NCBI GenBank assembly: GCA_029531795.1
Contig: JAPEIS010000006.1
Location: 2,108,001 to 2,172,000, forward strand
DNA: 64,000 nt
Source: Sclerotinia nivalis
Lineage: Eukaryota > Ascomycota > Leotiomycetes > Helotiales > Sclerotiniaceae
Direction of reading: 5' to 3'
This document shows, piece after piece, positions 8,530-54,262 of this stretch. A program made the translations under genes and the position numbers. Below the pieces are notes generated by a model that ran no database searches, had not been told where the DNA came from, and worked only from the letters and a program-made list of their open reading frames with translations. Numbering within the stretch: the stretch's first letter is position 1; every line of letters begins with the position of its first letter.

Positions 8530-10220
8530 TTAGGCTCGAACAACATGTTGAGCTTTCTCATGAGCAATGGTGTCTCGAACAATCTCCTCCATCATTTTTT
8601 GATCGGCCTTAGCTTGTTTGTCGGCAGTGAGATGATTTACCAGAGATCTGTGTCGATCAGTCCATAGAGATATGCCGTTAGTTGACAATAAACGCCTGTA
8701 ATGTAAGAGAAGTCTTTCAAAAGAAGCCTCGAATTCTTTATCATTTTTGCTATTACAACGGTAAATTGTCTTGAAATAGCACCTATACATAGTGGCATGC
8801 ATGTTGAGGGGTTCCAGAAGAATTGATGGTGGATAGCCTTTGGAGAAAAGAAAGATCGTTTTACACTCTTCCGGCGTGATGCGATACGATTTCAAAAAGT
8901 CGTTATAGCGTTCACCTCCAACGTTCCAGCCAGTACGATTAGGATCGACCATAAAAAGTGCAAAGTCGATGGCAATATCTCCTTTATGACAAGTTTCGTT
9001 ACGAAGATCAATCACTTCCTTACTTGCTGGACCCCGGCCTTCAATCTCACGAATCACACCACCGTGGTGAATGCGACGTCCAGAGTGATGAAATCCGTGC
9101 CGAACACGAGAAGAAAATTGCGCCGTCACCCTATAAAATGGAAGGCTGGCTTCAATTCTTTCTGATTCTTGCTTGAGCGCAGTAGTTGTGCTATTCGATT
9201 GAGGGGGGCAGGCTTTGTATTGCTCCAGGGCTGCCTCAGCTCGGGCTTGAGCTTTTTGTGCGGCATCAAGTTTGATTTGGAGGGAAGCATTATCCTCGAG
9301 GATCCGTGCAACAACGTCGGTAGTGTCATTCTTGCTTTGGGCTGGCTTAATGTTGCTTGGAGAAGACGTATTTATGGTCGGGATGCCAAGGACCATGGAA
9401 ATTTCGAGCTTGACTGCCTAATCGAAGTTAAGTGTGGGTCTCTTGTAAAAATACAGCTGTACCGGGACGGACCTCAAACTCCTTTCTCAACTGTTCTTTC
9501 TTAGCAGCAGCTTGTTCTCTTAGAGAAGCGGTGAATTTTACGATGTGCTCATCTGTATCAGACATAGAGAATACTCTCAATTCCTGGAGAGGATAATTGA
9601 CACCCAATTCGTCATTGATCTTTTGAATCAGATCATTATTCTTCTTGATGTTCTCATTGACTTCCTGCCGAGGGATGTTAGCAATGGGCTTAACCTGTCG
9701 ACTGCAGAGGAAGAAATTTGTTACTTACATGAAATACAAAGGAAAGATTGTCAAATTTGTCAATGAGAATTCTCTTCTCATCGAGGACGCTACTCTGAAT
9801 ACTCCGCTCGACTCGTTCTTCAGAAAGGTCGATGAGTTCAAGTCTCAGCTTTTCAAAGCTCTCGACAAGGTCTTTGAGGGATTTGTGATCTTTATCTTCA
9901 GAACTGTTGGCTGTAAGCGCTTCAATAGCTGTGGAGGTTAGGGGCTTCGTAACATGCTTCAGTTCTTCAGAAGATATAGATTCCTCCGCGTTTAAGAAAA
10001 CTTCATTGTCACTGAGATGTGGTTGACGACTGGCAGAAACTAGTGGAAGTGTATCTGATTGCATAGTCGGGACTTGTGATAATACTGATGATGGTTCATC
10101 AACTTTACCAGATGAAGCTTCCTCGACTTGACCGGCCAGATCATTTTGGGAGAGAGTTGACATGGTTTGAAGGGTGATCGAGGCAGGGTAGGTATCGAAT
10201 ATTATGGTACCGTCCCCCAT
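8530..10220 (-). CDS. Coiled-coil/GN-H family protein A
   Basis: Three exons, read on the minus strand: 10220-9729, 9664-9473 and 9417-8530, joined in phase 0, about 523 aa. Intron 1 has donor GTAAGT and branch GCTAAC 12 nt before CAG. Intron 2 has an unusual donor GTCCGT but a good CTTAAC branch before TAG. The N-terminus is Ser/Thr-rich; heptad-like stretches lie at about 140-230 and 255-300. The C-terminal domain contains 'LRNETCHKGDIAIDFALF' (Arg367, His372), the counterpart of GNxxxHxG...ADAALF in genes C-I. The upstream helix is poorly conserved and a Gly/His-rich insertion sits before the motif. The reading frame stays open upstream into a transposon end at 10364, so the true start may be 10220, 10163 or disturbed. 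Function unknown. Confidence 0.66.
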
Positions 10221-10363
10221 ATTGAGATCGTTTGAATGAATGCTAGATTCCAGACGATGTTTAGGGAGGGTAGATGAGGCCTGGAGTGCGGCAATGGGAT
10301 CCGTCTTTTTGATGTTTGATGTCGCGACCTCACCTGGAATATTAGTCTCACAATCGGGAAATA

Positions 10364-11213
10364 AGTCAGCTCCCCCACTTTTGAACCCTCTTTTGGACCA
10401 CCCCAGAAAATCATACCGCTTTGAGCAACCCAACTGTCATAATTGGAAGGATTATATAAGCCGATCATACCGATCGGGCCTCGAGCGCTAACCGCTCGAG
10501 GTCGATCACCTGCCTGTAGCTAGCATATATGAGCGGTGATCGATCTTTCAACCCTTACTTAATTATAGATACATGATCGAACTCGAGTGCTAGCCGCTTT
10601 GGGCCCGATCAGGGTGATCGGCTTATATAATCCTTCAAACCGTGACAATTTTTTTGTAAAAGGATCAGAGTTAAAAATAATTGGAATATATTACAGGATA
10701 GTATAACTACAGAGCACTTTTAGAGATCGGTAATTGACTAGGGTTGATTGAATTGAACGACTTGTTTTCGATTATATTGATCGAGGATTATATATACAGA
10801 CTAAATAGATAGTTATCTATCCGATGAGTATCTTGATTAGACTAGTTTTCGAATGATAGTATATTAGATTCACTTTATCGATCGTATAGATCGATAAGAT
10901 CTAGCCGAGCCTTTAGATCAGAGAGAGAATCATATACTCAGTAGTCTATAGACTATTAGAGATCATGGTATCTCTATAATAAAAAACTAACCTGAATTCG
11001 AAATTTATAAAGATTAAAATTATTAGATATATATATATCAAAATTGATAATTATGAAATTGATAAAGAGGATTTTATTAATACTATTGAAAACGATTTTA
11101 TAGATGATTTATTGAAATTAAGTAATTATTGAATTATTAAAATTTAAAGATTGAATAATAATATTTTTGGAGGTGGCCCAAAAGGGGGGTGGCCCAAAGC
11201 GGGGTAGTTGACT
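10364..11213. mobile_element. Decayed DNA transposon, pogo/Fot1-like inverted repeats (copy T1)
   Basis: The left end (10364 onward: AGTCAGCTCCCCCACTTTTG) and the inverted right end (TTTTGG..CCACC..CTACCCCGCTTTGGG, about 11163-11213) form terminal repeats of about 45 bp. They contain two copies of a TTTTGGNCCACC-like word. Both sides are flanked by TA (10362-10363 and 11214-11215), the target of Tc1/mariner-pogo elements. The interior is AT-rich without coding capacity. The same terminal words bound the element at 48644-49867. The Fot1-like label rests on the AGTCA...CCCC start and the TA target site; no transposase is readable. Confidence 0.65.
10435..10647. repeat. 213-bp fold-back / LTR-like insert nested in T1
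   Basis: The sequence starts TGTCATAATTGGAAGGATTATATAAGCC and ends with its inverse (...GGCTTATATAATCCTTCAAACCGTGACA), giving about 34-bp imperfect inverted ends with TG...CA termini. Inside are further palindromes, such as CCTCGAGCG near CGCTCGAGG. GC content is clearly higher than in the host element. GAAGGATTATATAAG near a TG end recalls solo LTRs of copia elements; a fold-back element is the alternative. I found no convincing target duplication. Confidence 0.5.
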
Positions 11214-11522: not shown

Positions 11523-13397
11523 TTAGCACATGGCGTCCCTCTGCAGACCTTTAATCTCCTGAACAATCCTCATCATTTCATTGAACATTTCACATTGGTT
11601 TGACCTAACCGCAGCATCGAAAATTTGACCTTTGTCCGCAGGGGTAGATGCATCAATTGCTTCGAATTCAATCAAGCACTGTGCAAATTGATTACGAAAG
11701 AGGGAGTCGCGAGTCTTGGAGAGTGTCATTTCTGTAAATGAACCACATTCCACAAGAATAGCATGCATGTCTAACATCTCATCGAGTCTTTCCGATGCCT
11801 TATATAAGTGACGGTATTCACCAACAGAAACTCCATACATGTTGCGAAACATTTCGTGACTGATGACGGGGCCGCTCACAACCCCTTTTTCAGATAAGAC
11901 GATCGAGGCAAAGTGTGCATTGACGTGACCTCCGGTTGTGGCGAGATTACCAGTACGAACAATGGCCTCGTTAAATGGAAGGTGGCTGTTATCCAACGAT
12001 GTGTAAATACCATCGCGCTTGACTCTTTTCATATTTTCGGCGCTTCTTGCTAAAATCGGAAGTCCAATCTCTTCGGCCACAACAGAAAGGTGAGCTTTCT
12101 CTTTCTCCACCTTAGCCAAATTGTGTACTAGTTGTCCGCGCACCTCATAAGATTCATCCAACGCGCCCTTATACTCTCTGAGCGTTTCTTGACCAGTAGA
12201 AACTTCAGAAGCAAGCCGTTTAATGGTGGCTTTTGTGCCAAGCCGAAAGCGATCAAATTTGCCTTCCCATTTTCGAATTTTCTCCTCAGTAGTCTGGAGT
12301 TCTAGTTTGAGGCGTCTATTCTCTTCGATTGTCGGGAAGTCACTTTCTTCCTCTGTTTGGTTGTCTTGTCCAAACAGATGGTCTAGTACATTCGAGGATT
12401 CTTCTCCATCGTCTGTAACCCAGGAGGTATCCCGATGCTGTATGTTGTTTTCGACAGGATACTCATCGAAGCTGGTTTCTTCTTCTCCCTGGTGGTTTTC
12501 ATACTCTCCCAGGTGACTATCTGGTACAATCGAATCTTCATCACTATCCTGTGAAATTGAAGAGGCGGGTCGAAGTGGAACGTAGCCTTCAACGTGATCA
12601 TCCTTCGAAATCTCGAATTTTTGTTTTTGGATATCCTACAACACGGTGCATGTGATTAGTATGTTTCAAAGCATAGTAGAATCACATGCTTACTTCTTTT
12701 GCTAATAGAAGCTGAGCTTTTGTATCCTGCGCAATGGAGCGTTTAGTCCTAATGTACATTTCCTTGCGCATTAATAAGTTCCTGTCTCGGCTAGCTTGAT
12801 CAGGATGCTCAATTGACTCGTCCACTTTCCCCATCATGGCAAACCATAGCTCAGCTCTCGTCTGGACTTTATCATCCCGAAGATTGAACAATTCCCGATC
12901 AATCACGCCTTCCTTTGCAATGAGATTCTCGAGAAGAGCTTCCTGTGTATCGGGGACAGCAGAGGATTCTTGAATACCCAATTCTACTCTGGAACTTAGT
13001 TCTTCCAATGTCTTTTGGTCGTCTTTGATTGTACAGTGGAGCTCTTGTACTTGAGCCCGCAGTTCCTCTACCTCTGTTTTCATTTTCTCTTCAGAGGATA
13101 TCATGCTCTCCAGTTCCGATTTGGTTCGTTCATGTTTGTTGATTAAGACAGAAATGGCTTTTTTGGATTCATCGCTGATCTGTGATACTGGTTTCTCTGT
13201 ACCGGACTTGTTGCGATTTATATTATGGCTGAGGAGGGCGAGTGGCTTCTGTGATTGAAAGAGGGTTAGCATTGATAGGCCGCGACTTGATATACCTTGT
13301 TTTTGTTAGACTCAATACTACTTACCCTAATGTCTTCATGAATTGAAAATTTCCTGCCCCTGCCTTTCTTATTGGTACAAGTTCCAAGGGATGTCAT
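11523..13397 (-). CDS. Coiled-coil/GN-H family protein B
   Basis: Three exons on the minus strand: 13397-13326, 13248-12694 and 12635-11523, all phase 0, about 579 aa. Introns are 77 and 58 bp; the first has GTAAGT and GCTAACC before CACAG. The 24-residue first exon is basic. Residues ~45-130 and 160-205 are coiled coil; 215-300 are acidic; a second coil leads into the C-terminal domain (about 390-579). The domain is divergent: 'IVRTGNLATTGGHVNAHFA' replaces the usual GNxxxHxG...ADAALF, with a 'MFRNMYGVSVGEY' segment like 'IYGVALDDV' of gene E. The third exon begins Asp-Ile-Gln-Lys after a phase-0 intron, matching the exon border of genes C and E. No stop or frameshift. Function unknown. Confidence 0.75.
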
Positions 13398-14039: not shown

Positions 14040-15725
14040 TTAATGACTCCTGAGCCTTAGCTTCTCCCGGTCAACAATTTGCTGGGAAATGTCTCTCATC
14101 TTAGTAAGACATTTCTCAATATTAGGATCAAAATCAAATGCGTTTTGTGCTTTGGCTGCTGATCCCAACTCCCGGAGAAATCTTTCGTAACTCAACTCAC
14201 ACTCATCTCTTAGGCTCTCAAACTCAATGTCCCCATTCTTATCATTTGTAAACTCCGAGAATGACAAACAGTGCGCCATTGTTCCTCTCAAGTCCGCAAT
14301 CTCAACATTTTTGGAGCCGATGCGATATCTGCCGCATCTACCCTGATTAACCATATCGACAGTAACGCCGTAAGTATGCAAGAAAAGCTCTTGATGTCCG
14401 TCGTCGAACTTGTTGTGGATATTCTCGTGAATCATGTAGGTATCGGCTCGGACATCGCCACTATGTACAGCAGCTGAGCCGCGATTAATGGCGCTTACAT
14501 CTGTGACGGCCAGCTACTGCTGTGTATTTACCGTGATCATTGCGTCGGGTCGACTCATTAAAAAAACGTAGGCGGGTATTAACGGAAAGTGTTCGAATAT
14601 CATGATTGGGATGGTTTCTGCCCTCCAATTCATATGTTAGGCTCTGGATATTTGTTTCTGCTTCCGTAAGCATCGACTGGGTAGAATCAAGTTCATTTTT
14701 GGTAGTAGAAAGTTCCAGTACAAGAGTATCTTTATGATTTTGAGCGTCTGTCAGTTGTTTTTGGGTGGTGGAGAGCTCTGCTTCAAGAGAGGCGATCCTA
14801 TCGGATGCAATACTCGCTGACTGGGCATTGTTGGCGGAGACTTCATCATGGCTACCAACTTCAGACTTTACATCCTTCGAATAGTGGCGCAGAATAACGT
14901 CGATTTTCTTCAAGATTTCCTGGATCATGAATCATTTAGTCAGCGATTTATTTTTGCCTCACAGTGCGTATAAATGATACTTGCTTACCTTTCTCTGCTC
15001 GCGTTGATTATAATTCATGCTGGCATTTTGAGCCTTGAGACTCTCCATCTCATCTTTCATCGCGTCTTCCCATGCTTCTTTGATATTCTGCTGGTCATCA
15101 CCAATGCCCAAAGTCACCTCGATGTCCTCATAGGTGAATTGAATCAAGTTCAAGCGTGTTCGACCCCCATGAAAAGCTCCGTAAAGATTCTGTGTAACTA
15201 TCAGCGCTTTGGTCAAGCAGGTTCAATGTAGCCGATCCTACCTTAACTTCTTGATTGGTACTGTGAGAAAGTTGGATTGCTAGGGCCACATACGTAGCTA
15301 GTTCATAGGCATTAGGTCACATGATCCTTCGTAGTTAAATATAAGGAGAAGGCTTTGCCTTCCCTTCTAGAATAATCAATCGTTTTCACTAGTCTTTTTG
15401 CATACCCACTGTATACAACCCCCAACCCATTGTTATTCACATTAGTTCTACTATTCGAAGTTTATACAATGTAGTCTGATCAGTTCGTATCCTATTCCCC
15501 CTCGCAGCGTGCTATCGGGACGCACGTATCTCGACCTACCTCTTTCACAGTACCATCAACCCAGCTCTTCTTCTTGGCTGCAACTTCGTAAAGCTTTTGC
15601 CGATGATGGTAAGATGTACGAAGAAAATTTGCATCGATATCATAGAATTTTTCGTGTAGTTCAATGAGCTGCAGAGACTCTTTATCCAATGCGTCTAGAG
15701 TCTCTGAGGCAGGATTGAGATCCAT
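14040..15725 (-). pseudogene. Coiled-coil/GN-H family locus C, frame-disrupted
   Basis: Read on the minus strand, exon 1 (15725-15540) encodes 62 residues ending before a GTAGGT donor. Further coding pieces lie at about 15310-15247, 15199-14989 and 14919 onward. Exon 1 has exactly the length and phase of gene E exon 1 and aligns with it (YHHRQKLYE versus YHSKKRFEK). The piece ending 'QEVK' matches 'AQEVKK' of E. The C-terminal domain reads 'NTRLRFFNESTRR' in one frame, then 'AVTDVSAINRGSAAVHSGD' and the rest to the stop at 14040 in another. A frame change is therefore needed near 14500-14525. No plausible intron bridges it. The distal part keeps 'DLRGTMAHC' and 'CLTKMRDISQQIVDRE', very close to E. 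Most likely a recently broken paralogue of E; a sequencing error in this short stretch is the alternative. Confidence 0.65.
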
Positions 15726-16135: not shown

Positions 16136-16733
16136 CTAAGAGTCTGCAACAAACAATTTGATGCTCCCGTCCTTCTTTATCGCATCTATTGCCATCTTCA
16201 GGAACTCTGTAAATTTCGAACTGAATAGAGCATCCTGCCTGGGAGATCTAGTTGACTTTCTAGACGAAAAACAAAATGCCATCGTAGCCCGCAAATCTAA
16301 AGTCTCTCTCACTTTGCTGGATTTCAAAAAAGCTGGATGTACGGAACCTGGCTTGACAACATAAATACTTCGAAGAAATCGCTCCTCCGTTCCTGAATAT
16401 TTGTATCCTAATCGGTAGAGCGCGTCGTCCGCTTGCATACTCTCACAATGGCAAGTACTGTTATCCTTTTCGATGAATTTGATATCGACCTCTCCACGAA
16501 TGTTCGGGAATTTGTCCTTTCATTCCCCAAAGACTCTGCGGCTTTGGCCTGCTTCAGAGCACGGAAAAGAACAGCAGCGACTTCTTGCCTCAAGCTACAG
16601 ATATTCGGAATTGTACTCCTCCAGTTCTTGTTTCAGCTTTACCTCCATATCTTCGTGAATCTGATGTATCAGACAACTAATCGTGCTTTGGGGGCATCGA
16701 TTGCAGCTTGAGCATTGATGCTGACGCCATGAT
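16136..16733 (-). pseudogene. Coiled-coil/GN-H family locus D, degenerate
   Basis: The minus strand carries an upstream coil-like piece ('MEVKLKQELEEYNSEYL') that ends in a TAG near 16610. A second piece, 'FRALKQAKAAESLGNE' in another frame, resembles the RxRFLEQ helix. A third frame then reads 'NIRGEVDIKFIEKDNSTCHC' followed by 'QADDALYRLGYKY', the GNxxxHxG...ADAALF segment. After that comes 'DLRATMAFCFSS', as in C and E (DLRGTMAHC). At least one stop and two frame changes are needed, so this is a pseudogene. Its C-terminal end lacks the usual final helix. Upstream exons could not be found with confidence. Confidence 0.6.
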
Positions 16734-17355: not shown

Positions 17356-19043
17356 TCAAATATACTTTCCATTGATACCACCACTCATGAATGAATGAGG
17401 GCCATCGACCTTGGTTCTTTCCACAACCGCATCACAGATCTCACGCATAGTGTTGCAGGCTTCAATAATTTCCGAATCATTGCTGAATGCCTTCGCTGCC
17501 TGAAGATTTGTAGACGATCTTCGGATTGTACACTCGTACTCCGATTCACAATACTCCGAGAGAGTCAAGAACCTGTCGTCTGCGTCCTTATCTGGCGTAT
17601 GTTCGGTGAAGCATCCTAGGTGTGCCATCGTTCCTCTCAAGTTCACCATCTCCGTTACCTTAGACTGCGGTGCAAATTTGTCAGTACAGCCTTGCTTTAC
17701 GTCATCCAGAGCAACGCCATAGATTTGTTGGAATGTTTGTTCAAACTTAGCGCGGTGATTGGAGTTGGTGATGAGTAATGCCGCATCAGCTCGAACATTT
17801 CCTCCATGTGGACTACTTGCCCCGGTACCCATTCCTGGAGCGCCAATGTGGATATTGAGTCCTGATTGACCACGAGAAATGATTCTATGATCTGAGTGGT
17901 GTTGAATGACGGGATATCCGTGCGCCTTAGATGTGCGAAGAAATTCAAGACGAGATTCGATTCTGACATCTCTAAGAATGTCGTGTGGCTCCCTGCTACT
18001 CTTCATCTTCGCCAACGAACTGGATAAACTTTTGACCTCCTCCTTCAGGCGGACATTGGTATCATCGAAAGTAACTTTGCGTACTGGGTTCCAACATGGC
18101 TGTGTCTGCGTCTGCACCTGCGACTGTGCAGACTCCAGCGCAGCTTCGAGCTTCTTGTTTTCCTCGGCATATCTCCTGTTGGTTTGAACATGCTCATCTC
18201 TATTCTCAGCAATCTGTTTCATAAGATCCTGTGTTGACTTCAAAGAATCAGAGATCTCTGCATTATCCTGAACAAGTTTGAACTTTTCATACTCAAGGGT
18301 TCTGTAGTCCTCTGTAAGGTCTTTGAGCTGTCTCTTTACTGTACTAAGTTGTTCCAAAAGCCGAGGGTTCTCGTTCTCAAATCTCTTGTCCGGTGATGGC
18401 TGGCGAGAGGATGTATGGTGGACGACGTGCTTGGGAGCTGTATGAGGATTGCAGGCTGATTCATCGAAGCAGGAGTCAAAGTGTTTTTCACTTGAACTAA
18501 AACCAAGAATGCGATTCTTTTTCCTCAAGATGTCCTGTATCCACCATCAGTATGGAATGATTAGCAAAAATGTAAATGAAACTCACCACCATACGCGCAC
18601 CAATATCCTCTTGACTCCGCTTCCACTCAGCAATCTCTCTCTTCTTAGTTTCGTTGTACCTAGATCCATCGTGCATAGCAAGAGCCTTTTTCACTTCCTG
18701 TGCACTTGTTTTGGGACCAATCTTGATTGGCCGTCTTTTACCGTGCTCAAGCGCCTTGAACTCAGCCGGCTCTTTGAGAGTGCTATTTTCTGCGGCACTC
18801 TACACTATATATCAGCCATGGATTTCTGGATTGAGAAAGAATAATTGAATGACTTACATTAATGAGATTTTTCCATCTCACAAGGCTTGCACATTTTTTA
18901 TCGGAAATCTTCTCGAATCTCTTCTTCGAATGATAGAGCTTCTCGAGCAAAATTGTCTCATGGTTTTCATATTGTGTGTTCAGTTCAGCAAGCTTAGCTT
19001 TATCTTTCTCCAACTCTCTTTTCCACTTCCTTTCGGGTGTCAT
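17356..19043 (-). CDS. Coiled-coil/GN-H family protein E
   Basis: Three exons on the minus strand: 19043-18858 (62 codons), 18799-18587 (71 codons) and 18534-17356, all phase 0, about 525 aa. Donors are GTAAGT and GTGAGT. The N-terminal 60 residues are a basic helix-rich segment. A Pro/His/Ser-rich linker (about 155-185) precedes a coiled coil at about 190-280. The C-terminal domain starts at 'VRIESRLEFLRTSK' (about 323). It carries a Gly/Ser-rich insertion before 'SPHGGNVRADAALL' (about 375-387), then 'IYGVALDDVKQG' and 'NLRGTMAHLGCFTEHT' (about 431-446). It closes with an amphipathic helix 'CNTMREICDAVVERTK'. It is the closest intact relative of locus C. No signal peptide or membrane segment. 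Activity unknown; the Arg-x(n)-His spacing of other members is not kept, so it may be a catalytically altered member if the family is enzymatic. Confidence 0.8.
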
Positions 19044-21240: not shown

Positions 21241-22068
21241 TCACTTCTTTCTTCTTGGAGGCCGTCTACCACGATGAGATTTGGGAGCAGCTGCGGGCTT
21301 CTTAAGAGGGGGCAAAGTCTGAGGAGGTCCATAACTGGTCGAAGGTGTCGCAGAACTGGCGTCATATCGCCGAGCTTTGGTGATAATTAGATCTGCGAAC
21401 TCTCCAAGCCTCTTTAAATGGTGTGTGACACTCTCATCTTTCTCGAATACATCATCTCCTAGCTCTAGGTGCTTATCTTTAATGAACTTCATACTATCAC
21501 TCGCGGCTTGTTTGTCCTTGATCATCGACCCATTATTTTGAGCATAAAGTGAAACGACACTACCCTGGTAATCGATAGCCTGAAGCATTTTTGAGGGCAT
21601 ATTACCATAGTTTTTAGGAGATAGACCATCGTAAATAAGAGGAAAGACCCCTTTGAGGTGCGCCTTTTCCTCATCTTCGAGAAAGTTTCCTGTGAGAAGA
21701 GCAGCATCTACAGCACCACATGCCCGATGTGCCGCATCATTTCCTCTCTGTATGAATTTGGCCTTTAAATTTGCTGGATTGAGGCCCATAACCTGGGATT
21801 TAGCTTGCTCAAGATATCGAATGCGTACATCAGCACCAATTCGGGCCAATATGTTCGTCTTTTTCTGTTCCGTTTCCATCTCCAACCTCATATCCTTCAA
21901 TTCCTGCTTCAGAGCCTTTCGCTCTGTTTCGACAAATCTAGCATGGTTATCTGCATCATCCAGTTGTTGTGTCTTCTCCCTGATTTCTTGGTCTTGTTCA
22001 ACTATACGTGCCTCCAGTTGCTGGCATCTCTCTTTCCAATATGTTGAGTTTATCTTGCTTTGTGCCAT
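21241..22068 (-). CDS. Coiled-coil/GN-H family protein F (short, intronless)
   Basis: A single exon encodes 275 aa from a clear ATG. Residues ~8-75 are a strong coiled coil rich in Glu, Gln and Lys. The C-terminal domain follows at once: 'GADVRIRYLEQAK' (78-90), then 'IQRGNDAAHRACGAVDAALL' (106-125; Arg108, Asn110, His114), then alpha-helical sequence with 'FVEKDESVTHHLKRLGEFAD'-like spacing. The tail (about 235-275) is Pro/Ala-rich and ends in a strongly basic cluster RGRRPPRRKK that could be a nuclear localisation or nucleic-acid-binding signal. This is the most compact member and the best template for the family core: one coil plus one domain. It lacks all introns found in B, C and E. Function unknown. 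Confidence 0.8.
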   Translation of the reverse strand: MAQSKINSTYWKERCQQLEARIVEQDQEIREKTQQLDDADNHARFVETERKALKQELKDMRLEMETEQKKTNILARIGADVRIRYLEQAKSQVMGLNPANLKAKFIQRGNDAAHRACGAVDAALLTGNFLEDEEKAHLKGVFPLIYDGLSPKNYGNMPSKMLQAIDYQGSVVSLYAQNNGSMIKDKQAASDSMKFIKDKHLELGDDVFEKDESVTHHLKRLGEFADLIITKARRYDASSATPSTSYGPPQTLPPLKKPAAAPKSHRGRRPPRRKK

Positions 22069-22738: not shown

Positions 22739-23584
22739 TCAGATATGTGTGCATTGACGGATTATAATTATAGTATTGCGGGGGATATCCGAGAAATTAG
22801 TCGGTCGAGTCGGATACATGCGAGCTGATAGATAGGATGAGCTAAGTTGTTCGTGTATATTTGATGACGCGTTCCAGTGGTTCTGATGTGGATTCCTCGG
22901 AATACATGAGTAGCAAGGTATGTTGTATGCACCCGAGAAATCATTTGAAGAGTTATGATATTGCCTGGCCGGCAGGCTTGACGGGTTGAGCTGACAATAT
23001 CCACCATGAAAAGTGTACATGTCTTGTGGTTCTGTGCGAATTGTACTATGTGCAACGGCCATTGCGTTAAAACTGATTTGAGGAGGATTATCGTACATGA
23101 ATTGGGGTGCATAATTATTCATAGCTCCATTTAGTGCAGAGGCATTGCTGTTGGAGAAAGTCGAATAGCCAGAAAAATAGCTCATCCTCGCTGACACCGC
23201 ACGCTCTACTCCTATGCCAAAGTCTGATGAGGATTGACCAGCCTGTGTTGGTTGCTGAAAATTCCTGGGAATCATCATAGAAGACGCACCGCCCAGGGCT
23301 TGATGCTGAAGTTGTGCTGAGGATTGTGTAGCTTCTGCCTGGCACTGGCAATATAACGAGGATTGAGTGGCTTGCGCTAGATACCGAGGCATTCCAGTGC
23401 TCGGCATAGAAGAGACGGTATATTGTACTGATCTTTGGGGACATAATGAGGATTGAATGGTTTGTACTGGAAACCGAGGCATTCCATCATTCAATATAGG
23501 AGGTATATCAGCTTGCGCCACTCGCTGAGGATACGATGGAAGTTGAATAGTTTGTGTCGGATGCTGAGATCCAGGATTCATCAT
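22739..23584 (-). CDS. Gln/Ser/Asn-rich low-complexity protein
   Basis: An open frame from an ATG at 23584 encodes about 281 aa. The frame stays open to about 23644 but has no ATG there, so an upstream exon is possible. The N-terminal 110 residues contain five or six imperfect repeats of a ~25-residue unit built on MPR(F/Y)xxQxxQSSLYxQ. At DNA level these are repeats of GGATTGAATGGTTTGTAC-type words (23330-23560). The middle is Asn/Tyr/Pro-rich, and the C-terminus is Arg/Thr-rich. There is no known domain, signal peptide or membrane segment. Such proteins are often disordered, prion-like or regulatory, but nothing assigns a role. Whether it is expressed is uncertain; the length of the frame and repeat conservation in one frame favour coding. 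Confidence 0.45.
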   Translation of the reverse strand: MMNPGSQHPTQTIQLPSYPQRVAQADIPPILNDGMPRFPVQTIQSSLCPQRSVQYTVSSMPSTGMPRYLAQATQSSLYCQCQAEATQSSAQLQHQALGGASSMMIPRNFQQPTQAGQSSSDFGIGVERAVSARMSYFSGYSTFSNSNASALNGAMNNYAPQFMYDNPPQISFNAMAVAHSTIRTEPQDMYTFHGGYCQLNPSSLPARQYHNSSNDFSGAYNIPCYSCIPRNPHQNHWNASSNIHEQLSSSYLSARMYPTRPTNFSDIPRNTIIIIRQCTHI

Positions 23585-24723
23585 GGAAGATGCGAAAGTT
23601 TGGCCTTGATTGAGCACATTTGTGCAGCGTGTTGCTGCCGCCAAATGCGTGTATTACGGGAGTTGGTCATTTAGTAGCGTCGAGTTCTCGATTTTGATAT
23701 GCCGTGCTCTCTTTCGCATGTTCTCATATATACCGTGAGAAGCTTTTTGGGAACCACTTTCCATGTCGAGAGTATCTGTGTTGTTGTTTCGAGGATGCTT
23801 TTTCCCACCATTTGTACTGTTCAGTTCTTAGTAAACTACATCAGCTCTTCATATGTTTTAGAACCAACCATGATTGTGTATTAGGATTGAGGGTTTCTAC
23901 AAATGAGAAAGGAGGCCCACCCTAAATCCTAAGTTGCGATCAGTATTGTGCAATCATTAAAACCACAATTCGGAATATCATGTATCCTGTTCAATTGAAC
24001 AAAACTGTGAAGGACTTACCAAGAATCCAACTATTTCAATTGAATAGAATATCAATGAAAAACTTTTGAAGGGAAGGTGAGGCGATGCACAAGTAAAGAA
24101 ATGAAAGGAAATAAAAAGAGATCTTGATGTGGGAATTTCTAAAGTACCGGGAGCAATATCATTTCCGCCCCATAAGCCAGCAACCAATAATAAATTTAAA
24201 ATAAAGAAATTGGAGTATTACACTTACTATGTACAAGTTAATTAACAAGTTATTCTAGGAAGGTGCTTTCATGGCAGGTGTGATGGTGCAGACAACTGCA
24301 GAAGGAGACTAAGGAAGGGAAAACAGAAGCCACGATCAGAGATTAGTCAAAATTTGTGCGATCTTGTCATACCACTCTGCTTAGATCTTCTTAACCTTAA
24401 TTTGCTCAATGATAGTAAGCAGAAGGAGTGATTGAAAAATTTGTCAGTAGAGAAGTTTCCTTCATTGAATTTTTCGTGAGGAGTGGAAGGAAATAATTGA
24501 TTGAGTAGGGTATGAATTCAATTTAGTCACTTTTCAAGGCAGAGGAAAGGAATATTATCACTTGATATTAAGTTGGAATCAGTTGCAGATATTGGTAAAG
24601 ATGACGTCTAGTCGTTTGATTTTGAATTGAATTTCACTCACCTTCGGGCTCAAAGTGCATGAAGGCCAGCTTCATAAAGAATTTCCGCCTTCAACCCCTA
24701 TCCCCATATTGCCAACCAATGAC
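23585..24723. other. Gene-free stretch
   Basis: No supported coding region. The DNA is moderately AT-rich with Gly/Ala-type purine runs (24290-24320). It may contain the promoter of the Gln/Ser-rich gene close to 23600-23900. Confidence 0.35.
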
Positions 24724-26572: not shown

Positions 26573-26891
<319 letters not shown>

Positions 26892-32400: not shown

Positions 32401-32932
32401 TAATTCTACTTATAAATATATCTTGGTGGTAATCTATAGACTAACCAAAATGAGATATTTCATCGATACATATATATTAACAACAAAGGAGCTAATCGAT
32501 GCTTTTATCAATTGCATCTATACACTTCATGAACTTCCGGATAATATCATTTCCGATCGGGGAACGCAATTCGTATCAGGATTCTGGTCACAACTCTCGG
32601 AGCGATTAGGAATTACTTTAAAACATTCTTCAGCTTTTCATCCTCAAACAGATAATCAGATTGAGTATATTAACTCGGTTTTGGAGCAGTATTTACGAGC
32701 TTTTGTTAACTATCATCAAGACGATTGGTTGGATTGACTACCCTTAGCCGAATTTGTATCCAATAATTTGGTCTCTGAAACAATTGATTGTTCGTCTTTC
32801 TTCGTCAATTACAGCTTTAATCTATATCTAAGTATTGAGTCTAGTAAATTTTGCCCATCGGATATGACTTTAGTACAAAAACGGGAATTCTTTAAAAATA
32901 ATAGGATTGCAGATCGTATAGAACGTATCTTG

Positions 32933-38359: not shown

Positions 38360-38793
38360 GTTGTTGAAAGTCTGACGATAGATTAATTTATGTAGGGTAG
38401 AAATCTTGTGAATCAGATCGTTTCTTGCCGTCAATGATGTAGGTAGACTGTTAACCGTAAGTCAACTAAATTTTTTCCAGGTATATTAGGAGTTACAAAG
38501 CATTATTCCTAAACAATTCTCATATAGTTCACGCAGTGTTTTCCTAGTTCTAGATCTTGAGAATAATCTCCTATTGTAATAGAGGTTTTACCGCATGATT
38601 ATTCCAACTAATAGTATTGGGCGAATAGGGGGGTCTATACTGATTGGCAAAGGAGAATGGTACTTAATTTTGGTCATTATTACATGAGTTATTGATTGTT
38701 TGTATCACTTGAAGAGTTTTTACTTTAGAAGAAAAAGAATATTCATTGTATAAATGAGTGCGAATGAAATGGAAAAAACAAAATCAGCCCAAT
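38360..38793. other. Gap between 2EXR genes 2 and 3
   Basis: Promoter side of 2EXR gene 2 and 3' side of 2EXR gene 3. No repeat or RNA gene is evident. Confidence 0.4.
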
Positions 38794-39477
38794 CTATATG
38801 CCTCGCATTTCGAATGAAGTGCAGCTTTTGATTTGCAGGTCCTGAATGACGATTTCAGGGATTTTGGTGCAATTGCCGTGCGCCAGCTTGTCTTGATAGT
38901 ATTTTGTCACTTCATGAAGAACATCACGATGATCATTACTGTAATTTCCAATACGGAGGATCAACTGATCCAAGGATCCAAAATGAACAGCATTGTACAT
39001 CCACATCCCAAGGTCTTCTTCCAGCTCAAGTATTTTGACCGAGTCGCACTCTGGCTGTGGAGGAAACCTGTAGGTTTTGTCTGGTGGCCCATGGATAAGT
39101 TGATCTTGTGGGAAACTGAAATATCGGATATCTCTGAAAGCAATTGTATCTTTTTCTGGACAGAAATATACTTCATGTGTCTTGCCTGTAAATGTTTGGC
39201 CATCAAAAAGCTTGCTGAGAACCTCCTTGGATATAATTTCACTTTCGAAGTCAGCATATAAAGTGGAAGGTGATGAGATATTCATATGGAACTCATTGTC
39301 AGTAATTTCCACTCGGCGTGCTGGGTTGGTAGCTGCCAATTTCCATATTATGAATCTGATTTCTCTTGGGAGTTTCCTAAACAATGGGAAAGCTGGTTCA
39401 GTAGTATCACCCTGTACAGAATTTGGTAGGCTCGAAGATCCAGCTTTTGAGCTCCAGTTTTGAAGGTAGTTGAACAT
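38794..39477 (-). CDS. 2EXR-domain protein 3
   Basis: A single exon encodes 227 aa from the ATG at 39477. The domain begins after a ~30-residue Ser-rich leader with 'FRKLPREIRFIIWKLA'. It continues with 'TLYADFESEIISKEVLSKLF' and 'YFCPEKDTIAF'. The canonical Asn of NxESR is Asp here, and FNP is FCP. The protein is shorter than its two neighbours and ends after an 'IPEIVIQDLQ' strand that resembles 'IPEIILSP' of gene 1, so it covers the same core. All three genes point the same way with 0.4-0.8 kb gaps, which suggests tandem duplication followed by strong divergence. Confidence 0.82.
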   Translation of the reverse strand: MFNYLQNWSSKAGSSSLPNSVQGDTTEPAFPLFRKLPREIRFIIWKLAATNPARRVEITDNEFHMNISSPSTLYADFESEIISKEVLSKLFDGQTFTGKTHEVYFCPEKDTIAFRDIRYFSFPQDQLIHGPPDKTYRFPPQPECDSVKILELEEDLGMWMYNAVHFGSLDQLILRIGNYSNDHRDVLHEVTKYYQDKLAHGNCTKIPEIVIQDLQIKSCTSFEMRGI

Positions 39478-40548
39478 GATCAAATGGCAGCTGATTTATA
39501 TCTAGTTTTTTGGTTGTGATTCTGTTTGTAGTTCTGTTTGTGAAAGATTCTGCTTTCAAAATTATAGACTGCGAAGCTATGAGATTAAATAGATGACTCT
39601 GAGGTATTGTGTATAATCTATACTTGATGTGTTCCAACTTTTCTTGTAAGAGGTTCAAAGACAAGGAATGGGTGGGGAAAAAAAAGACAAAGAAGTCTAT
39701 TGTACAGACAAAAGATGTGATGGGAAAATGATCTGGCCTGCAACAATGGCACAAAAGAGACCAAGCAAAGAGAATGAAGTTAAAAAATGCAATCTATGCT
39801 ATCAAGCTTTAAAGTAGATCAAGACTCAGTCAATTGAATGCTGTTGTTCAAGAACAGGAATGGAGCTGAGAGGAGAAGATAGGATGAAGGACTTAAAGGT
39901 TGGAACCGGTACCAAAGTGGACTATGTGGTTCATTTGTATATTGATGGATATGACTAATAGTCAATACATGTTACTGGCTGATTATATTTGAATTCCGGA
40001 ATGCCATTATTTCATGGACTTTGCTTGGGTTTGTTTGCATGAAGCAGGTGGGCAGGATAGATGTTGTACACTAGGCCCCACGTATACAATCAATCAATCA
40101 TCAAGCACTTAATGGCAATCATTTCAACTTCCCATTGTGACTTCTCTACAGTATTTCTTTTTATAAGATTGTACAAATATCCAGTTTTTTTTGTCCATAT
40201 CATTGAGCTCTGTTACCAATGTTCTTTTCATCTTCATTTAGCCTTACACATTGTCAAACACTTAGATTGGTTAACCAAATGACAACCATAAGCAGAGATC
40301 AATATGTTTAATATAAACCTTGACTTCCATAATAGACCTGATGAGGTATATCTTATAAGCAAAAAATAACAATATCATGACTGATTAGGTATCACCCATC
40401 CATCGTTAAAAACACACCTCGTTCCCGACCATCCAATTATTCCCAAGAATCAATGATTCATCATGTTCAGAATCACATTCTACAATACAAAAGAAACAAG
40501 AAACCCTATGGTCAAAAAACATCTCATCTCATGTCCCTCCTTGTTTCA
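39478..40548. other. Gene-free stretch upstream of 2EXR gene 3
   Basis: The first 200 bp should hold the promoter of 2EXR gene 3. The rest shows ordinary composition, with no coding frame or repeat that I can support. Confidence 0.4.
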
Positions 40549-45896: not shown

Positions 45897-48038
45897 ATGG
45901 CTGTGCCTCAAGATATTCCAATTCGACTTCAATCGATCAAGGCCTACATCGAAGGAAACAAATCCGTGGTTAGCCGACCTGCAACTAGCTGGGCAATAGA
46001 ATCAATGCTCAAAAAGATGAACCGAATTCTTTCCGATAGTATAACTCCCGGAGTTCTTCTAGATAAAGTACATTTAGAAGAACTTTTCGTCTGTTTCAAT
46101 GATGTTACCTCAACGATTGATAGTCTCAGATCCCACGCAGTCCAGCCGGTTGATAGCTCATACTTGGAGCCCGAAGCTCAGGTTCCGATCATCACGAATA
46201 CAGAAGAAGCTAATAAGGTTAAGAGCACAGAACCTTCAGATTGTAGAGTTGTGGCGGATGTTTCAAAGACCAAATGGAACAATGTGTCGACACCGGAGTC
46301 CAATGAGCTCATAAGAGGCGCCTCATTTTTGAATAGCTTTCAACCCATCGTGGATTCTGTGCCGAACGACACACCCAAGGAACCATCGAGTCAAAACTCG
46401 AATAGCCAACACGCTACGTTGCTGACTTCTACACCTGAGCATAAAGAGAATCCAAAGGGAAAGAAGAAGAAGAAGTCAAAGAATAAGACCTCCTCCGAGA
46501 ATGTCACCGGAGAAGTGGCTTCCATGCCAATAGTGCCAGAGTCTGTTCCGCTGCAACCGCTGCCAATGGCAAGAGGTTATACTCCACCCGCCATATCCAC
46601 GCCAATAGTAGTTCCATCTCCATTCAAGGCTGAAGTTGGTACCTCAATGCTATCACTCACCATGACCCTGTATGATAAGCCAAGTCATTCGATCATAATT
46701 GAGCAGAAAGCGGTCGGAGAGGATTTACTGCAGGTATTGATGGATAAGTCAAAAAAGGTCGAAGGTGAGAACGTCGAGTTCCAGAAGGCTCTAGCAGAAA
46801 TGTCGAGGAAGTACGAGGCTATCAAATTTGAAAACAGAAATTTGAAGACGGATCGCAACAAGGAGGTTGAGAAACTTCGCAAAGAGCATTCATTGTTGAA
46901 TGAGACATCCTCGAACAACACGGCGGAACTCTCAAAGTCACGATCCAAGGTACATGCTTTGGAATCAGAAATTATGGAAAAGTCAGAGCTACTAGAAGAA
47001 TTCAATAATGGGATGAAATTGTTACGAGCAGAGGTGGCAAGACATTCGGACGAAATGAAACACCTCAGGCAATACCAACCAAACTTCGACGCCCATATAT
47101 GCATTTTCGAGAAAAAGAAGACCTCTATGAGCATCGAGGATAATCATGCGGAGTTCCTTTCCTCGACACGACACGAATGCAATATCGAAGATTCGCCAAG
47201 TGCAACGTCTCAAGATATCACAAACAACACACTACTATCAGAGGAAGGAAGAAAGACATGCGTAGTAATGGAAGATCTACGGAAGGACAATGCTGAGCTG
47301 CGTGCACGATGCAAGTGGTATTGGGATTTACTTCAAGCTTCGAACCAGACCAAAAAATCCGGTGGCATCAGCGAAGCGGAATGGGCAAAGAGAAAACCAC
47401 TATTTGACGTTGGAGTGGCGGTTCGAAAGAGATTTCTTGAACAATCCAAATCTACACTACCTTACCGCGAAGCTCAGAGTGTGCCGGACCATACAATTAT
47501 CAGGGAAGGAAATGAGCGCTGCCATAGAGGAAATGCAATTGCAGATGCTGCACTTTTCGAATTTGGATTTCTGACAGGCCCTGACAACGAAACCGCATAT
47601 CGAGATGTGTATCACATATGGGCAGATGACGTTGCAAATCACCACCAAGAAATCATTGAGGCCATGGAACTTTGTGCCAATATCGGCACAGTCAAGGCTA
47701 CAAGAGCTTCTCAAGAATACAGGAACGAAGCATTTCAATGCTGGAATTCTCTAATCGCTTTGCGTGAAACTTGTCAAACGGAAGAGGACTTTATCGTAAA
47801 TCCGGATCGCGATATTTGGTTGTCACGTCTGCGTCAGCTGTCAAGGGACATTGTACGTATTGATAGGGATAGAGGTTATCGCTATTCTACTGAAGAAGCA
47901 GAAGTAAGCATATGCCTCTTCTAGTGTTGGAATTGAGAACTAATCATGCGTTAACAGGACACTGAACAAGATGAATGGGCAATGCCGGCTAGTGAGCAGG
48001 ATGATTGGGCAAGGTTGGCTGCTGAAACGCAGTCTTGA
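45897..48038 (+). CDS. Coiled-coil/GN-H family protein G
   Basis: Two exons, 45897-47903 and 47958-48038 (54-bp intron, GTAAGC, phase 0), about 695 aa. The start is the first in-frame ATG. An upstream exon is possible because the frame is open further 5'. Residues 1-80 are helical; a Ser/Thr/Pro-rich linker contains a basic run KGKKKKKSKNK (about 188-198) that could be a nuclear signal; a coiled coil spans about 280-385. The C-terminal domain begins at 'VGVAVRKRFLEQSKS' (about 505). It has 'IIREGNERCHRGNAIADAALF' in essence (Arg536, Asn539, His543), then 'AYRDVYHIWADDV' and a final 'LSRDIVRIDRDRG' helix. The last exon adds 26 residues with the repeat DEWAMPASEQDDWARL. Best-conserved plus-strand member together with H. 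Function unknown. Confidence 0.82.
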
Positions 48039-50368: not shown

Positions 50369-52414
50369 ATGGCAGCCAGAAAGAAGAAATTAGCTAGTGC
50401 TTCTGCATCCACTCAACTGCCCGCAAGAACCGTCTCACTATCGTCCTTAAAGGCAGAAAACCAATCACCACTTGAAAAAGAAGGTACGGAAAACCGTTTA
50501 CTAAATACATTGACACACTGATACTTAAACGAAGTCACAGACCAAATTGTCAAGCGCCAAGAAGTCGAAGAAGCTCCACGTTCCTGGCCCCTACAACCAC
50601 CTATGATCGAAGATTGTAGTGGTGAGAGGTACTCTGGGTGGGATTCGAATGAAGATTCTGACAGCAAAGGCTTTTTAGACGATGATATGGACTTTTTGCC
50701 GACTGGTTGGGGTAAAAATGATAAGCAGTCGAATGAAGATGAGGAGCGAGCGGAAATGGTCAGGAAAGCCAGGTTGAAGAAAGAGAAATCTCAAGCGTCT
50801 GCTGTCATGATATCAGCGCGTGAGAAGGAAACAGCCAGAGTTCAAGGTCGACAGGTAGATTTTCCTCGAGCATTTGTCAGGTTACCGAAGTCTCGCGTCA
50901 ATATGGAGATTGTAGAGTCTGGCACAAAAATTTCTAGTGATTCAACCGAGCAAGCTGTCGAAGAGGGCATCAAGGTGATTAACTCGATGATACCCGTCGA
51001 GAGTTCGTGCGTCGTATCTACTTCTCAACCATTAGATGTCGTCGAAAGCAAAATCTCTGTCAGCAAGTCAACGGTACTGGAAACAGAATCGAGCATCAAA
51101 TCAGTCGAAAAGATGGCCCAACAAGAGCGTGATCTGAAGTCCTCGAAGACACAAACCGGTTCTCTGCGTGCCGAGATCGAAGCTCTGAATCATAAGCAAA
51201 GGCTGGAAATGCAAAAGCAGATAGACCAGCTCAATGAACGCCATCAAAAAGAAATGGAAGCAATGAAATTGGATCTCAAGGAGGCGGAAGCGGCACGCCA
51301 GAAGGCTTCGACCGACCTGTGCAAGGTGAGGGAGAAGAATTCCGCGGTTCGGACGGAGAGGAGAGAGCTTGATTTAAAGTTGGCGGCAGTGAACGAAGAA
51401 GTAGTGAGGCTTACGGAAGATATCTCAGTGTTGGAGACCCAAAAGAGTGATGCACTTACAATGGAAGACTTCTCCTCTAATGCGCTATACGAGTCAAGAC
51501 AGGAGACTAGAGCCGCTGAATTCGGCCTGCAGGTGGAAAGGATGCATAGTGCAACGTTACAACAGCAAATTACGAACTTGAGAAGTAAGAATCGCAGTAT
51601 TAGACAACAGCACTCTCAGTCAGCCTCAACTTCTAGACGCCTGCAAGACCTGGAGCGAAAGTACGATAGTCTCAAAGATGATTATTTCACTCTTGAGAAT
51701 AAACACAATGAGCTCGACGACGATGCTGCTAGATACCGACGTGAGCTTCAAAAGTACAAACAAGATGCGGAAAGCTATAGGAAGAAGCTAGATACCATTC
51801 AGATCGAATTAGAGTGTGTTGAGAAAAGCCTCAAAAATATGGCCACCAATCATGTGAATATGCTTCTTACCCGAGAATCCATACGACAAGACTATCAGGA
51901 ATTGAAAAAGACCCACGATCTTAGGGAACCACTGGTCAAGATAGGAGTAGACATACGACTGCGGTTTCTAGATCAATCTCGAGAGATCGCCCTCAATATC
52001 TCTCGAGACGAGGCAGATATGGCTCTGAGAACTAACGGCAATGTTGCTGCACATAGGGGTAATGCAGCTGCTGATGCTGCACTTTTCAAATGTAATTTAG
52101 TTCCGGAGGAGTACGAGGAAGAGGCCGATGAGATATTCCAGAAGCTGTACAAACAGAAGCCAAGTGAGTACCCAGTCTGGACTGGAATTGCCGAAAGACA
52201 GACGGACTGCGAAGCAACATTAACAGCAACAAAGTGGTCTAGCATCTCAGAGACTCTGCGTGAAGATTGGCGCAAGGTGTGGAATGAACTCTGTAACCAT
52301 ACAACTATATCTGATATGGTTGAGATTGAAAGGATTGTGGGATTGATTACAAGATTGGAAGCTTTGACCGATGAAATTGTGGACATAGAACGTTCTCGAG
52401 GTCGTCGCAGATGA
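50369..52414 (+). CDS. Coiled-coil/GN-H family protein H
   Basis: Two exons, 50369-50483 and 50541-52414 (57-bp intron, GTACGG...CACAG, phase 1), about 662 aa. The basic N-terminus (MAARKKKLASAS) is followed by an acidic patch 'DSNEDSDSKGFLDDDMDFLP' (about 73-92). A very long coiled coil runs from about 225 to 500. The C-terminal domain opens with 'LVKIGVDIRLRFLDQSRE' (about 507-524). Then comes 'LRTNGNVAAHRGNAAADAAL' (about 534-553; Arg535, Asn539, His543). It ends with 'LEALTDEIVDIERSRGRRR'. The domain copy at 53651 is clearly a duplicate of this one. The layout (charged N-terminus, long coil, compact C-terminal domain) suggests an oligomeric scaffold that displays the domain. Function unknown. 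Confidence 0.85.
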
Positions 52415-53650
52415 TGTAGTCGCTCGGATGTGCCTAGCACACGTTTTAAGTGTTCAGGTAGTCAGTCATAGTGTGTGAATAATTGTGGGCCTGTGAGTGG
52501 GAAAGGAATATGTAGATTCAAAAGCACGCGAGCCAGGTTATCGATGACCTGGTAATAGAAAGGATAAATCAAGGGGTGATCAATGTGGATTGTCTGTTTG
52601 GAGTATGACCCGACCAATTATGAGATATGTAGTTTTACTTCCTGGATGGCAATGATGTTTGTGTTTAGTCGTGGGAGCGTGCAATGAGATTTAAGTACAT
52701 ATGTAGGAATAAATGTTATGAAATATTTTTCTTTGTAGATGTGAAAAGATTCTTCCATTGCATCTCGGTGTTCAACTACAGATATATGATTGAAATAGAT
52801 TCTACCTGAAAAATATCACCAAACAATGATAGATACTTTCAGTGATATGATTCACCGGGAATTGTCAGTCCGACTCACAAAGTCTTAATTCATCGGACAG
52901 TAGATAGACCATTGTATAGTGCCTATCCGGTTTGCATCATTTAGCTACAGGAAACATCTTATTGTATTCTCGGACACCTATTCCAGGTCATATAATCCCA
53001 CTATATCAGATATGTGAAGTGAAATCAAACAACATGGCAAGTTCTTCTAGGTTTCAATGAATAGCAACCTAAAATGTTGAAAATTTAAATGAAAAACTAA
53101 AAACATCTCGTTGAACTTGGAATATTTAATAAATTAAAGATCCTAACCTGGGCCATGTATTCCGGATTTTTAATTCAGCTTATAAAAATTGACCGTCTCG
53201 AAGAAACAACTCACCTCCATGCATCATTCTCTAAATTTTAAATATTCCTCCCATACCATGTCAACCCAACGTGATCAAATCCAAGCGGATAACCATGATC
53301 TCTAAAAGAACATCCATGATCATTATCACAACGACAAGAATCATTAACTCAACTTTAATAACATAACTACATCTGCATAGCCCAGTTTATGCCTAACTAT
53401 TCCAAAGCTTCATGAGAATACCTGCACAGGATGATCTAGTTTTTCTTCAGATTATGTGCTATCTAATTTCTCGGCTAAGCAGATTCATGACTACTTCAGA
53501 TATCTCAACTTGATACTATCTCTGCTAATTGCTGGTTAGAAAGATTGTACGATGTCTAATGATTACTCGGAACAATAACTCTACCATTTAAACGAATAAT
53601 TAAAGTTAGAACTAACTATGTGTTGAAAGTCAGAAGTGCTATGAACGATA
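52415..53650. other. Gap between gene H and pseudogene I
   Basis: 1.2 kb without a convincing frame. Its last 250 bp should correspond to lost N-terminal coding sequence of I, but no coil can be read there. Composition is moderately AT-rich. Confidence 0.4.
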
Positions 53651-54262
53651 TTGTGGATTGAAGTACTTGGATCTTGGTTGCCTGCTCGCCAACGGATGCG
53701 GCGATTGGAGGACATGGTACTTGCCGACGACTATTTTGAGATGAGAGAAGACAACTTGAACTTCCAAGTAATTCTTAATCAAAGTATAAACGGCAGTCAA
53801 GATTTGCAGGCTCGAATTAATGGACTTGTCGAAGAAAATGCCATGAAAGAATCTCTTGTAAAGGTTGGAGCATATGTCCACCTCAGATTTTTGGAGCAAG
53901 GAGGAAGAGAGGTGAATAGGAGGGACCATCATTTCGAGCTGAACCAAGAGCTGTTAGACGGCGGGAATATCGCAGCGCACAATGGCATCCTGAGGGCAGA
54001 TGTAGCCTTATTCCAAAGCAGCCTCATACCAGAAAACTACATGATGGAAGCCCGAACAGTCTTCCAGGAGTTGTATTAAGCCCAGCCAAGCAACTATGGT
54101 AACTCGGATCCTCTTAATGAGAGATTATCGAACTGCGTCGCGACAAATCGAGCGCACAGAAAGACCGACAGTTCGGTAACTCAGCGCATAGTGACGGAAT
54201 GGCGAAACACCGATGAAACCTCTCTCATTAGGCATTCAGATCTTATTGCAGCAATGGAATAA
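53651..54262 (+). pseudogene. Coiled-coil/GN-H family locus I, truncated duplicate of H
   Basis: The frame 53651-54079 starts with a short coil related to H ('RRLEDMVLADDYFEMRED' versus RRLQDLERKYDSLKDDYF). It continues with 'ESLVKVGAYVHLRFLEQGGRE' and 'DGGNIAAHNGILRADVALF', the family core. A TAA at 54077-54079 interrupts it exactly where H reads LYKQKPSEY. The same frame goes on 'AQPSNYGNSDPLNERLSN' to a second TAA at 54260-54262, still alignable with H. Most of the H coil is missing and no start region is preserved. The Arg before the motif is Asp here. A decayed tandem copy of H rather than an active gene. Confidence 0.78.

What the first reader, a model, noticed from the sequence alone, without database searches (positions are those of the whole stretch)
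8530..54262. Nine-member clustered family of coiled-coil proteins with an unassigned C-terminal domain
Loci A-I share a C-terminal core: a helix like VRxRFLEQxK, then GNxxxHxG, then ADAALF, then in C/D/E DLRGTMA, and a closing helix like MRxIxxxIVxRE. The N-terminal coils differ in length from ~65 (F) to ~275 residues (H). Six loci lie left of the repeat core, all on the minus strand; three lie right, all on the plus strand. I cannot match the domain to any family I know by name. Local clustering, strong divergence and mixed intact/broken copies point to a rapidly evolving gene family under birth-and-death turnover.
Basis: partly seen in the sequence, partly recalled or inferred. Interest (0 to 1): 0.9.

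Follow-up and report, generated by a model that had tools for sequence, protein, structure and literature searches.

The report
Ancient coiled-coil gene array in Sclerotinia
A fungus related to grey mould carries a row of old duplicated genes for rod-like proteins that end in an unnamed helical domain, whose most conserved motif resembles one found in a large class of RNA-cutting domains.

Summary
In detail: nine loci (A-I) encode an N-terminal coil plus a shared C-terminal core of about 165 residues, six on the minus and three on the plus strand around an AT-rich stretch with retroelement fragments. The genome is Sclerotinia nivalis. Three more members lie outside the window on the same contig. 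A, B and E are split by introns; C, D and I are broken. Rapid birth-and-death is only partly right: E, F and H have orthologues in other genera, and one Botryotinia gene model is collinear with E-D-C-B; in Monilinia vaccinii-corymbosi E and H tags lie far apart. No Pfam, NCBIfam, PADLOC or PDB match to the core is significant. Its signature (GN-x-A-A-H, then D-A) locally resembles the HEPN motif of DUF4145: Pfam E 0.1, below cut-off; hhalign P about 0.001 for H and all cores, 0.01 for F; 0 of 150 shuffles reach the H and all-core scores. The HEPN Arg is not conserved and the fold is not shown, so I propose, but do not file, a divergent HEPN-like RNA-binding or RNA-cutting domain on coiled-coil oligomers.

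The parts
8533..10436 (-). Locus A: coil and core gene, probably three exons (outer ORFs 9693-10436, 9431-9724, 8533-9417); core 8533-9144 with LRNETCHKGDIAIDFALF
   Evidence: exon borders inferred from splice-like sequence, not shown by RNA
11526..13305 (-). Locus B: probably two exons (outer ORFs 13305-12685 and 12635-11526) around a GT...CTAAT...AG intron; core 11526-12089 without the His
14043..15222 (-). Locus C: pieces 15222-14962, 14931-14488 and 14513-14043; reading frame broken between the last two; the B. narcissicola gene model reads through
16139..16657 (-). Locus D: degenerate copy with in-frame stops; core piece 16139-16519
17359..19043 (-). Locus E: three-exon gene = OCU04_006304 of S. 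nivalis, 525 aa (19043-18858, about 18808-18587, 18534-17359); core 17359-17976 with an insertion in the motif region
21244..22068 (-). Locus F: intact single-exon gene; coil residues about 13-76, core with RGNDAAHRA
45897..47921 (+). Locus G: open gene (start codon inferred); core 47397-47921 with REGNERCHRGNAIADAALF
50369..52411 (+). Locus H: intact gene, short first exon from 50369 (by alignment to the S. cepivora protein) and long ORF 50522-52411; core 51914-52411 (modelled)
52037..52054 (+). H signature GNVAAH (core residues 42-47); conserved Asp at 52073-52075, Tyr at 52148-52150
53645..54259 (+). Locus I: copy closest to H, interrupted by an in-frame stop at 54077-54079

Best explanation
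An old tandem array of probably intracellular coiled-coil proteins. SHOWN: paralogues share one C-terminal core; E, F and H have orthologues across Sclerotiniaceae genera and part of the order is conserved; C, D and I are broken in this assembly. SUPPORTED BY MODEL: the core is all-helical and a long N-terminal helix runs into it; in H the signature helix ends at the His of GNxAAH and a short loop leads to a helix that holds the conserved Asp. INFERRED: the coil makes the proteins homo- or hetero-oligomers, placing several cores side by side, as HEPN domains usually act in pairs (recalled). The core is a strongly diverged HEPN-like domain that binds RNA, and in paralogues that keep an Arg at the classical spacing (A, C, F, G, L025) may cut it. 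Proteins without the His (B; 9 of 12 E-type proteins looked at) would be non-catalytic RNA binders or partners.
For: Family. Old orthology and collinearity. Conservation: Leu 7, Asp 54 and Tyr 79 (H core numbering) are at 90% or more in a 55-row alignment of full-length or ORF sequences; Gly 42, Asn 43, His 47, Asp 54 and Tyr 79 are invariant in 23 hand-picked F, G, H and I-type rows. F model: helix 13-99, block pLDDT 85-95 for residues 11-70 and 64-73 for 71-100. H core model: pLDDT 84.3, pTM 0.76, helix 33-47 ending at the His, next helix 51-59. DUF4145 is the only Pfam model listed at E up to 10 for the H core alone, on residues 33-50, the motif itself, and is listed for 5 of 36 full-length members, best E 0.23, beside coil models listed for more. 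The 17 DUF4145-type comparators have G, N, A and H of G-N-x-A-x-H in 17 of 17, then Asp or Glu at +9 in 11 and Ala at +10 in 13; the fungal rows have D-A at +7/+8. hhalign scores 26.1 (H) and 27.1 (all cores); 0 of 150 column shuffles reach either (maxima 23.9 and 17.0); reversed 9.2 and 11.2. Five other alignments of these proteins score 7.6-11.5 against DUF4145. A and L025 carry RNxxxH.
Confidence: 0.38

Rival explanations
1. The core is an unrelated fungal helical fold. Gly-Asn-Ala-Ala-His is a packing and helix-capping motif reached by convergence, and the proteins are non-enzymatic coiled-coil scaffolds or adaptors.
For: No significant match of the core in any library or fold search; the Arg of HEPN is not conserved; 9 of 12 E-type proteins lack the His; two pattern scans of 84,980 prokaryote species found no relative.
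Against: Asp and Tyr stay at 90% or more over 55 diverged rows, unusual for pure scaffolding; the motif shared with DUF4145 includes the following D-A at a similar distance and exceeds 150 of 150 shuffles.
Confidence: 0.4
2. A rapidly turning-over conflict family (allorecognition, antiviral or anti-transposon), with birth-and-death as its main mode.
For: Tandem clustering, three broken copies of nine, a retroelement-bearing break in the middle of the array, E and H tags 225 apart in M. vaccinii-corymbosi, 55-71% identity to Botrytis for E, F and H.
Against: Orthologues of E, F and H across genera and collinear E-D-C-B; both coil and core are kept between orthologues; no match above 41% identity to another copy in the nine genome searches with family members.
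Confidence: 0.17
3. The resemblance is only coiled-coil composition and not homology.
For: Coils dominate Pfam and PDB sequence hits of the full-length proteins.
Against: The shared part lies C-terminal to the coil, and cores match each other above reversed decoys.
Confidence: 0.02

Closest known systems
DUF4145 (PF13643), HEPN superfamily, e.g. N-terminal part of HsdR-like helicases
   Same: Motif G-N-x-A-[AVT]-H, at a helix end in the H model, then a short loop and a helix with acidic-Ala; H orthologues also share the Arg eight residues before the His
   Different: Score below cut-off; similarity limited to 10-25 columns; only one domain helix before the motif helix instead of the HEPN helix 1-2 pair plus insert; fused to a coil, not to a helicase
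HEPN RNases with RNxxxH, such as the KEN domain of Ire1/RNase L (the exact KEN spacing is recalled; PMC3710099, passages and sections 7 and 9 read)
   Same: A and L025 carry RNxxxH
   Different: Most other paralogues have GNxxxH or less; no kinase partner; no fold match on the motif part
Eukaryotic lineage-specific HEPN expansions (Oikopleura, monocots, Daphnia, Caenorhabditis; PMC3710099 section 9)
   Same: Lineage-restricted paralogue expansion with motif decay in some copies
   Different: Fungal, coiled-coil fused, old; that section names no fungal expansion (it does name the conserved Swt1 family for fungi)

Membership tests
HEPN superfamily / DUF4145 | Score above Pfam's curated cut-off for PF13643 | tested here: not met
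   Best 13.1 bits against 23.1 (H core), no hit for the other 9 of 10 cores; no match in the whole genome at E up to 10
HEPN superfamily / DUF4145 | Conserved Rx4-6H motif | tested here: not met
   22 of 45 motifs, which looked only at proteins passing a motif filter. By paralogue of this genome 5 of 12 (A, C, F, G, L025), or 6 of 13 with the doubtful first core of L010; B and E judged by eye. In the 17 comparators 12 have Arg at x7, as H orthologues do
HEPN superfamily / DUF4145 | Motif His at the end of a helix, before a loop and the next helix | tested here: inconclusive
   Met in the H core model (helix 33-47, His 47), not in the F model (helix 108-131, block pLDDT 65-71 at residues 101-120)
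HEPN superfamily / DUF4145 | Four-helix up-down bundle, with insert between helix 2 and 3 | tested here: inconclusive
   Foldseek found no match at E 0.001; VIA rows mostly cover residues 88-166 of H
HEPN superfamily / DUF4145 | Profile-profile similarity | tested here: inconclusive
   hhalign P 0.0009-0.01, 10-25 columns, probability 4-22%; 0 of 150 shuffles reach the H and all-core scores
HEPN superfamily / DUF4145 | RNase or RNA-binding activity | not testable with these tools
   Needs purified protein

The most novel reading that the evidence does not exclude
A fungal lineage-specific expansion of HEPN-like domains, mounted on coiled coils and kept as an array, acting as an oligomeric RNA sensor or RNase (for instance against mycoviruses or transposon RNA), with paralogues that switched between the RNxxxH and GNxAAH forms of the motif and others that became non-catalytic partners.
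Probability: 0.2. Interest if true: 0.75.

Novelty: new variant of a known kind. Interest (0 to 1): 0.45.

Why it matters
If the core is HEPN-like, it adds a fungal expansion to the eukaryotic HEPN repertoire; PMC3710099 (section 9, 2013) names expansions in a tunicate, monocots, Daphnia and Caenorhabditis and none in fungi. It would give a testable candidate RNA-level defence or regulation system in a fungal family that includes major plant pathogens. Even if it is not HEPN, it defines an unnamed signature (GN-x3-H, Asp, Tyr) in an old array that none of the profile libraries searched here covers.

Tried and rejected
Chance similarity: rejected by reversed decoys. Named domains: Pfam, NCBIfam and PADLOC gave only coil-type or sub-threshold hits; coil models reach E of about 1e-5 for the coils. 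PDB by sequence: no hit at E 0.001 for F; coils for the A5 profile, best 1.4e-5 (60 of 96 shown). Structure: Foldseek against PDB for F and H and BFVD for H had no match at E 0.001; VIA-align rows mostly cover the C-terminal helices, which is no evidence that the fold is new. Prokaryotic or viral relatives of the whole core: pattern scans found none. RIP as the cause of decay: no RIP signal over the family genes. Secreted effector: not favoured, as the N-termini of E, F and H look hydrophilic by eye; no signal-peptide program was run. Shared basic C-terminal tail: net charge +1 to +8 in F-type proteins but 0 or +1 in 13 of 14 H-type ones, so not used. Faster coil than core evolution: seen for Botrytis pairs of H and E, not for F nor for the Monilinia and Ciborinia E pairs. 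Motif-filtered counts: Asp is 47 of 47, Tyr 46, His 42, Gly 42, Asn 37, but most of its rows were located by patterns that require the Asp and allow only a few residues at the Asn and His places, so these counts, except Tyr, are partly by construction; P0018 and four E-type proteins (P0042, P0047, P0049, P0051) fell outside the filters. I therefore rely. First core of L010: seen by motif only; in the profile searches its stretch has E 18 and 1.1. Coil controls against the fungal core gave 45% for the H coil and 93% for the F coil (the latter overlaps the core), so they are no clean controls for the core. Literature (listings unless said): locus tags (passages of PMC7065775 and PMC6390599 read, on neighbouring genes only), S. 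nivalis genome (63), HEPN domain with fungi (37, 15 of 32 listed), HEPN with Pezizomycotina (68, one paper), a five-term motif query (69, none), HEPN with Botrytis (123, 8 of 9 listed) and Sclerotinia (124, 4 of 5 listed): reviews on CRISPR and crop biotechnology. The three protein searches use E-values for 5.8 billion sequences, and one search scored only 7996 candidates, so distant fungal relatives are probably missed.
Full report
WHAT IS THERE. The window is G000:C6:2108001-2172000 of a 50.3-Mb genome. A public S. nivalis protein, OCU04_006304, contains locus E at 100% identity, and its contig length, 2,869,516 bases, equals that of C6, so the organism is Sclerotinia nivalis. A-F are on the minus strand left, and G-I on the plus strand right, of an AT-rich stretch with reverse-transcriptase and integrase fragments.

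MEMBERSHIP. A profile from F, G and H-type cores finds I, D, C and E above every decoy, A at 0.021 (best decoy 0.14) and B at 0.76. After E, C and D cores are added, B (3.8e-8), A (1.4e-6) and I (1.1e-17) stand clear of the best decoy (0.31). Three members outside the window are on the same contig: C6:2079410-2080072 and two between 2643740 and 2648692. The second of these, L010, may hold a degenerate second core, seen by motif only (stretch E 18 and 1.1). A weak, stop-ridden match lies on C7 (E 0.019); one on C1 (E 0.3) is probably chance. Searches are by exon and counts are lower bounds.

INTACT OR BROKEN. Splice-like joins explain the gaps in A, B and E; for E the public protein confirms them. 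C is broken by a frame change, D by in-frame stops, I by one in-frame stop. The B. narcissicola gene model P0035 reads through C. I do not list mends. An assembly error cannot be excluded for C.

AGE. Homologues at E up to 0.01: 15 for F, 18 for H besides the window's own, 16 for E besides its own. In the tree E (6 rows, 100/98) and F (16 rows, 98/100) are each one clade across genera; H orthologues and I group with modest support (97/77); A-E plus L025 form one clade (98/95) (several long branches, so deeper joins are unsure). P0035 aligns in order to window E (18507-17374), D (16657-16400), C (15192-14049) and B (13284-13111). Locus tags: S. cepivora H 000418, F 000425, E 000426; B. fragariae F 005445, H 005449; B. 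galanthina H 00100, F 00170; B. hyacinthi E 00270, F 00280, H 00350; B. sinoallii E 011881, H 011889; M. laxa H 002507, E 002510. Against: M. vaccinii-corymbosi H 008055 and E 007830, far apart; B. calthae and B. tulipae F and H on different contigs. The duplications behind E, F, H, C and D thus predate at least the split of Sclerotinia and Botrytis. Identity of the S. nivalis core to Botrytis/Botryotinia orthologues is 64-71% (H, 3 pairs), 66% (F, 2) and 64% (E, 2); of the N-terminal part 57-59%, 65% and 55% (7 of the 16 pairs; not calibrated against housekeeping genes).

THE CORE. In a 55-row alignment of full-length or ORF sequences, Leu 7, Asp 54 and Tyr 79 of H are at 90% or more. In 23 hand-picked F, G, H and I-type rows L7, R17, L19, G42, N43, H47, D54 and Y79 are invariant. 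The AlphaFold model of H (pLDDT 84.3, pTM 0.76) has helices 4-27, 33-47, 51-59, 65-79, 83-88, 92-104, 113-127 and 135-163; helix 33-47 ends at the His. The F model (pLDDT 76.6) shows one helix 13-99 running from the coil into the core and puts the motif inside a continuous helix 108-131. Neither Foldseek nor VIA-align gave a convincing relative; the VIA rows mostly cover the last helices.

HEPN TEST. The only Pfam model listed for the H core is DUF4145 (E 0.1, residues 33-50), a HEPN family according to PMC3710099 (passages and sections 7 and 9 read). [quoted passage not shown] I collected 17 DUF4145-type domains: three seeds from a viral-contig scan with a pattern that required the motif (4 of the 7 stretches looked DUF4145-like by eye, 3 were used, all 3 confirmed by Pfam) and 14 of the 57 plasmid hits listed in two searches, chosen for diversity. 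All 17 have G, N, A and H of G-N-x-A-x-H; Asp or Glu follows at +9 in 11 and Ala at +10 in 13; the fungal rows have D-A at +7/+8, the Asp partly by the way the rows were chosen (see Tried and rejected). hhalign scores are 26.1 (H), 20.8 (F), 26.2 (F+G+H) and 27.1 (all), P 0.0009-0.01. None of 150 column shuffles reached the H or the all-core score (maxima 23.9 and 17.0); reversed profiles scored 9.2 and 11.2. Without the three seeds the scores are 25.3, 20.5, 26.1 and 25.9; against the L042-like subset alone they fall to about 21.4, against the L044-like subset they rise to 28.0; five other alignments of these proteins score 7.6-11.5. Against: the match is short, probability 4-22%, below Pfam's cut-off, and the classical Rx4-6H is in 22 of 45 motifs only. 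So the motif resemblance is more than chance order, but membership is not shown.

HOW IT MAY WORK. Coils would assemble the proteins; cores placed side by side would form RNA-binding or RNA-cutting sites around Asn, His, Asp and Tyr; proteins that lost the His (B, 9 of 12 E-type proteins) would act as partners or binders. The oligomer and RNA steps are inference. The rival, an unrelated scaffold fold with a convergent motif, is about equally likely.

VERDICT. Real, old paralogue array with an unnamed domain. The interest lies in the possible HEPN link, which an RNase or RNA-binding assay or one structure would settle.

Noticed in passing
window 26573-26890: A (TAA)n run of about 106 units at 98% match inside the AT-rich stretch.
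   Followed up: no
window 30572-31207 and 32351-32734: Fragments with reverse transcriptase (E 1.2e-18) and integrase core (E 1.5e-7, just under the cut-off) matches in the AT-rich stretch that splits the two arms of the array; described only.
   Followed up: partly
window 34718-35382: A 331-bp unit in two tandem copies, 94% alike.
   Followed up: no
window 35642-39495, minus strand: Three neighbouring 2EXR-family genes, a second tandem group within the same interval.
   Followed up: partly
L010:196-1758: One ORF with a clear core near its end and a possible degenerate second core before it (motif only, not significant by profile).
   Followed up: partly
G000:C7:1946311-1946538: A weak, stop-containing match to L025 (E 0.019), possibly a relic of the family on another contig.
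   Followed up: no
window 22739-23653, minus strand: A 304-residue open frame with imperfect Q/S-rich repeats near F; no Pfam hit at E up to 1.
   Followed up: no
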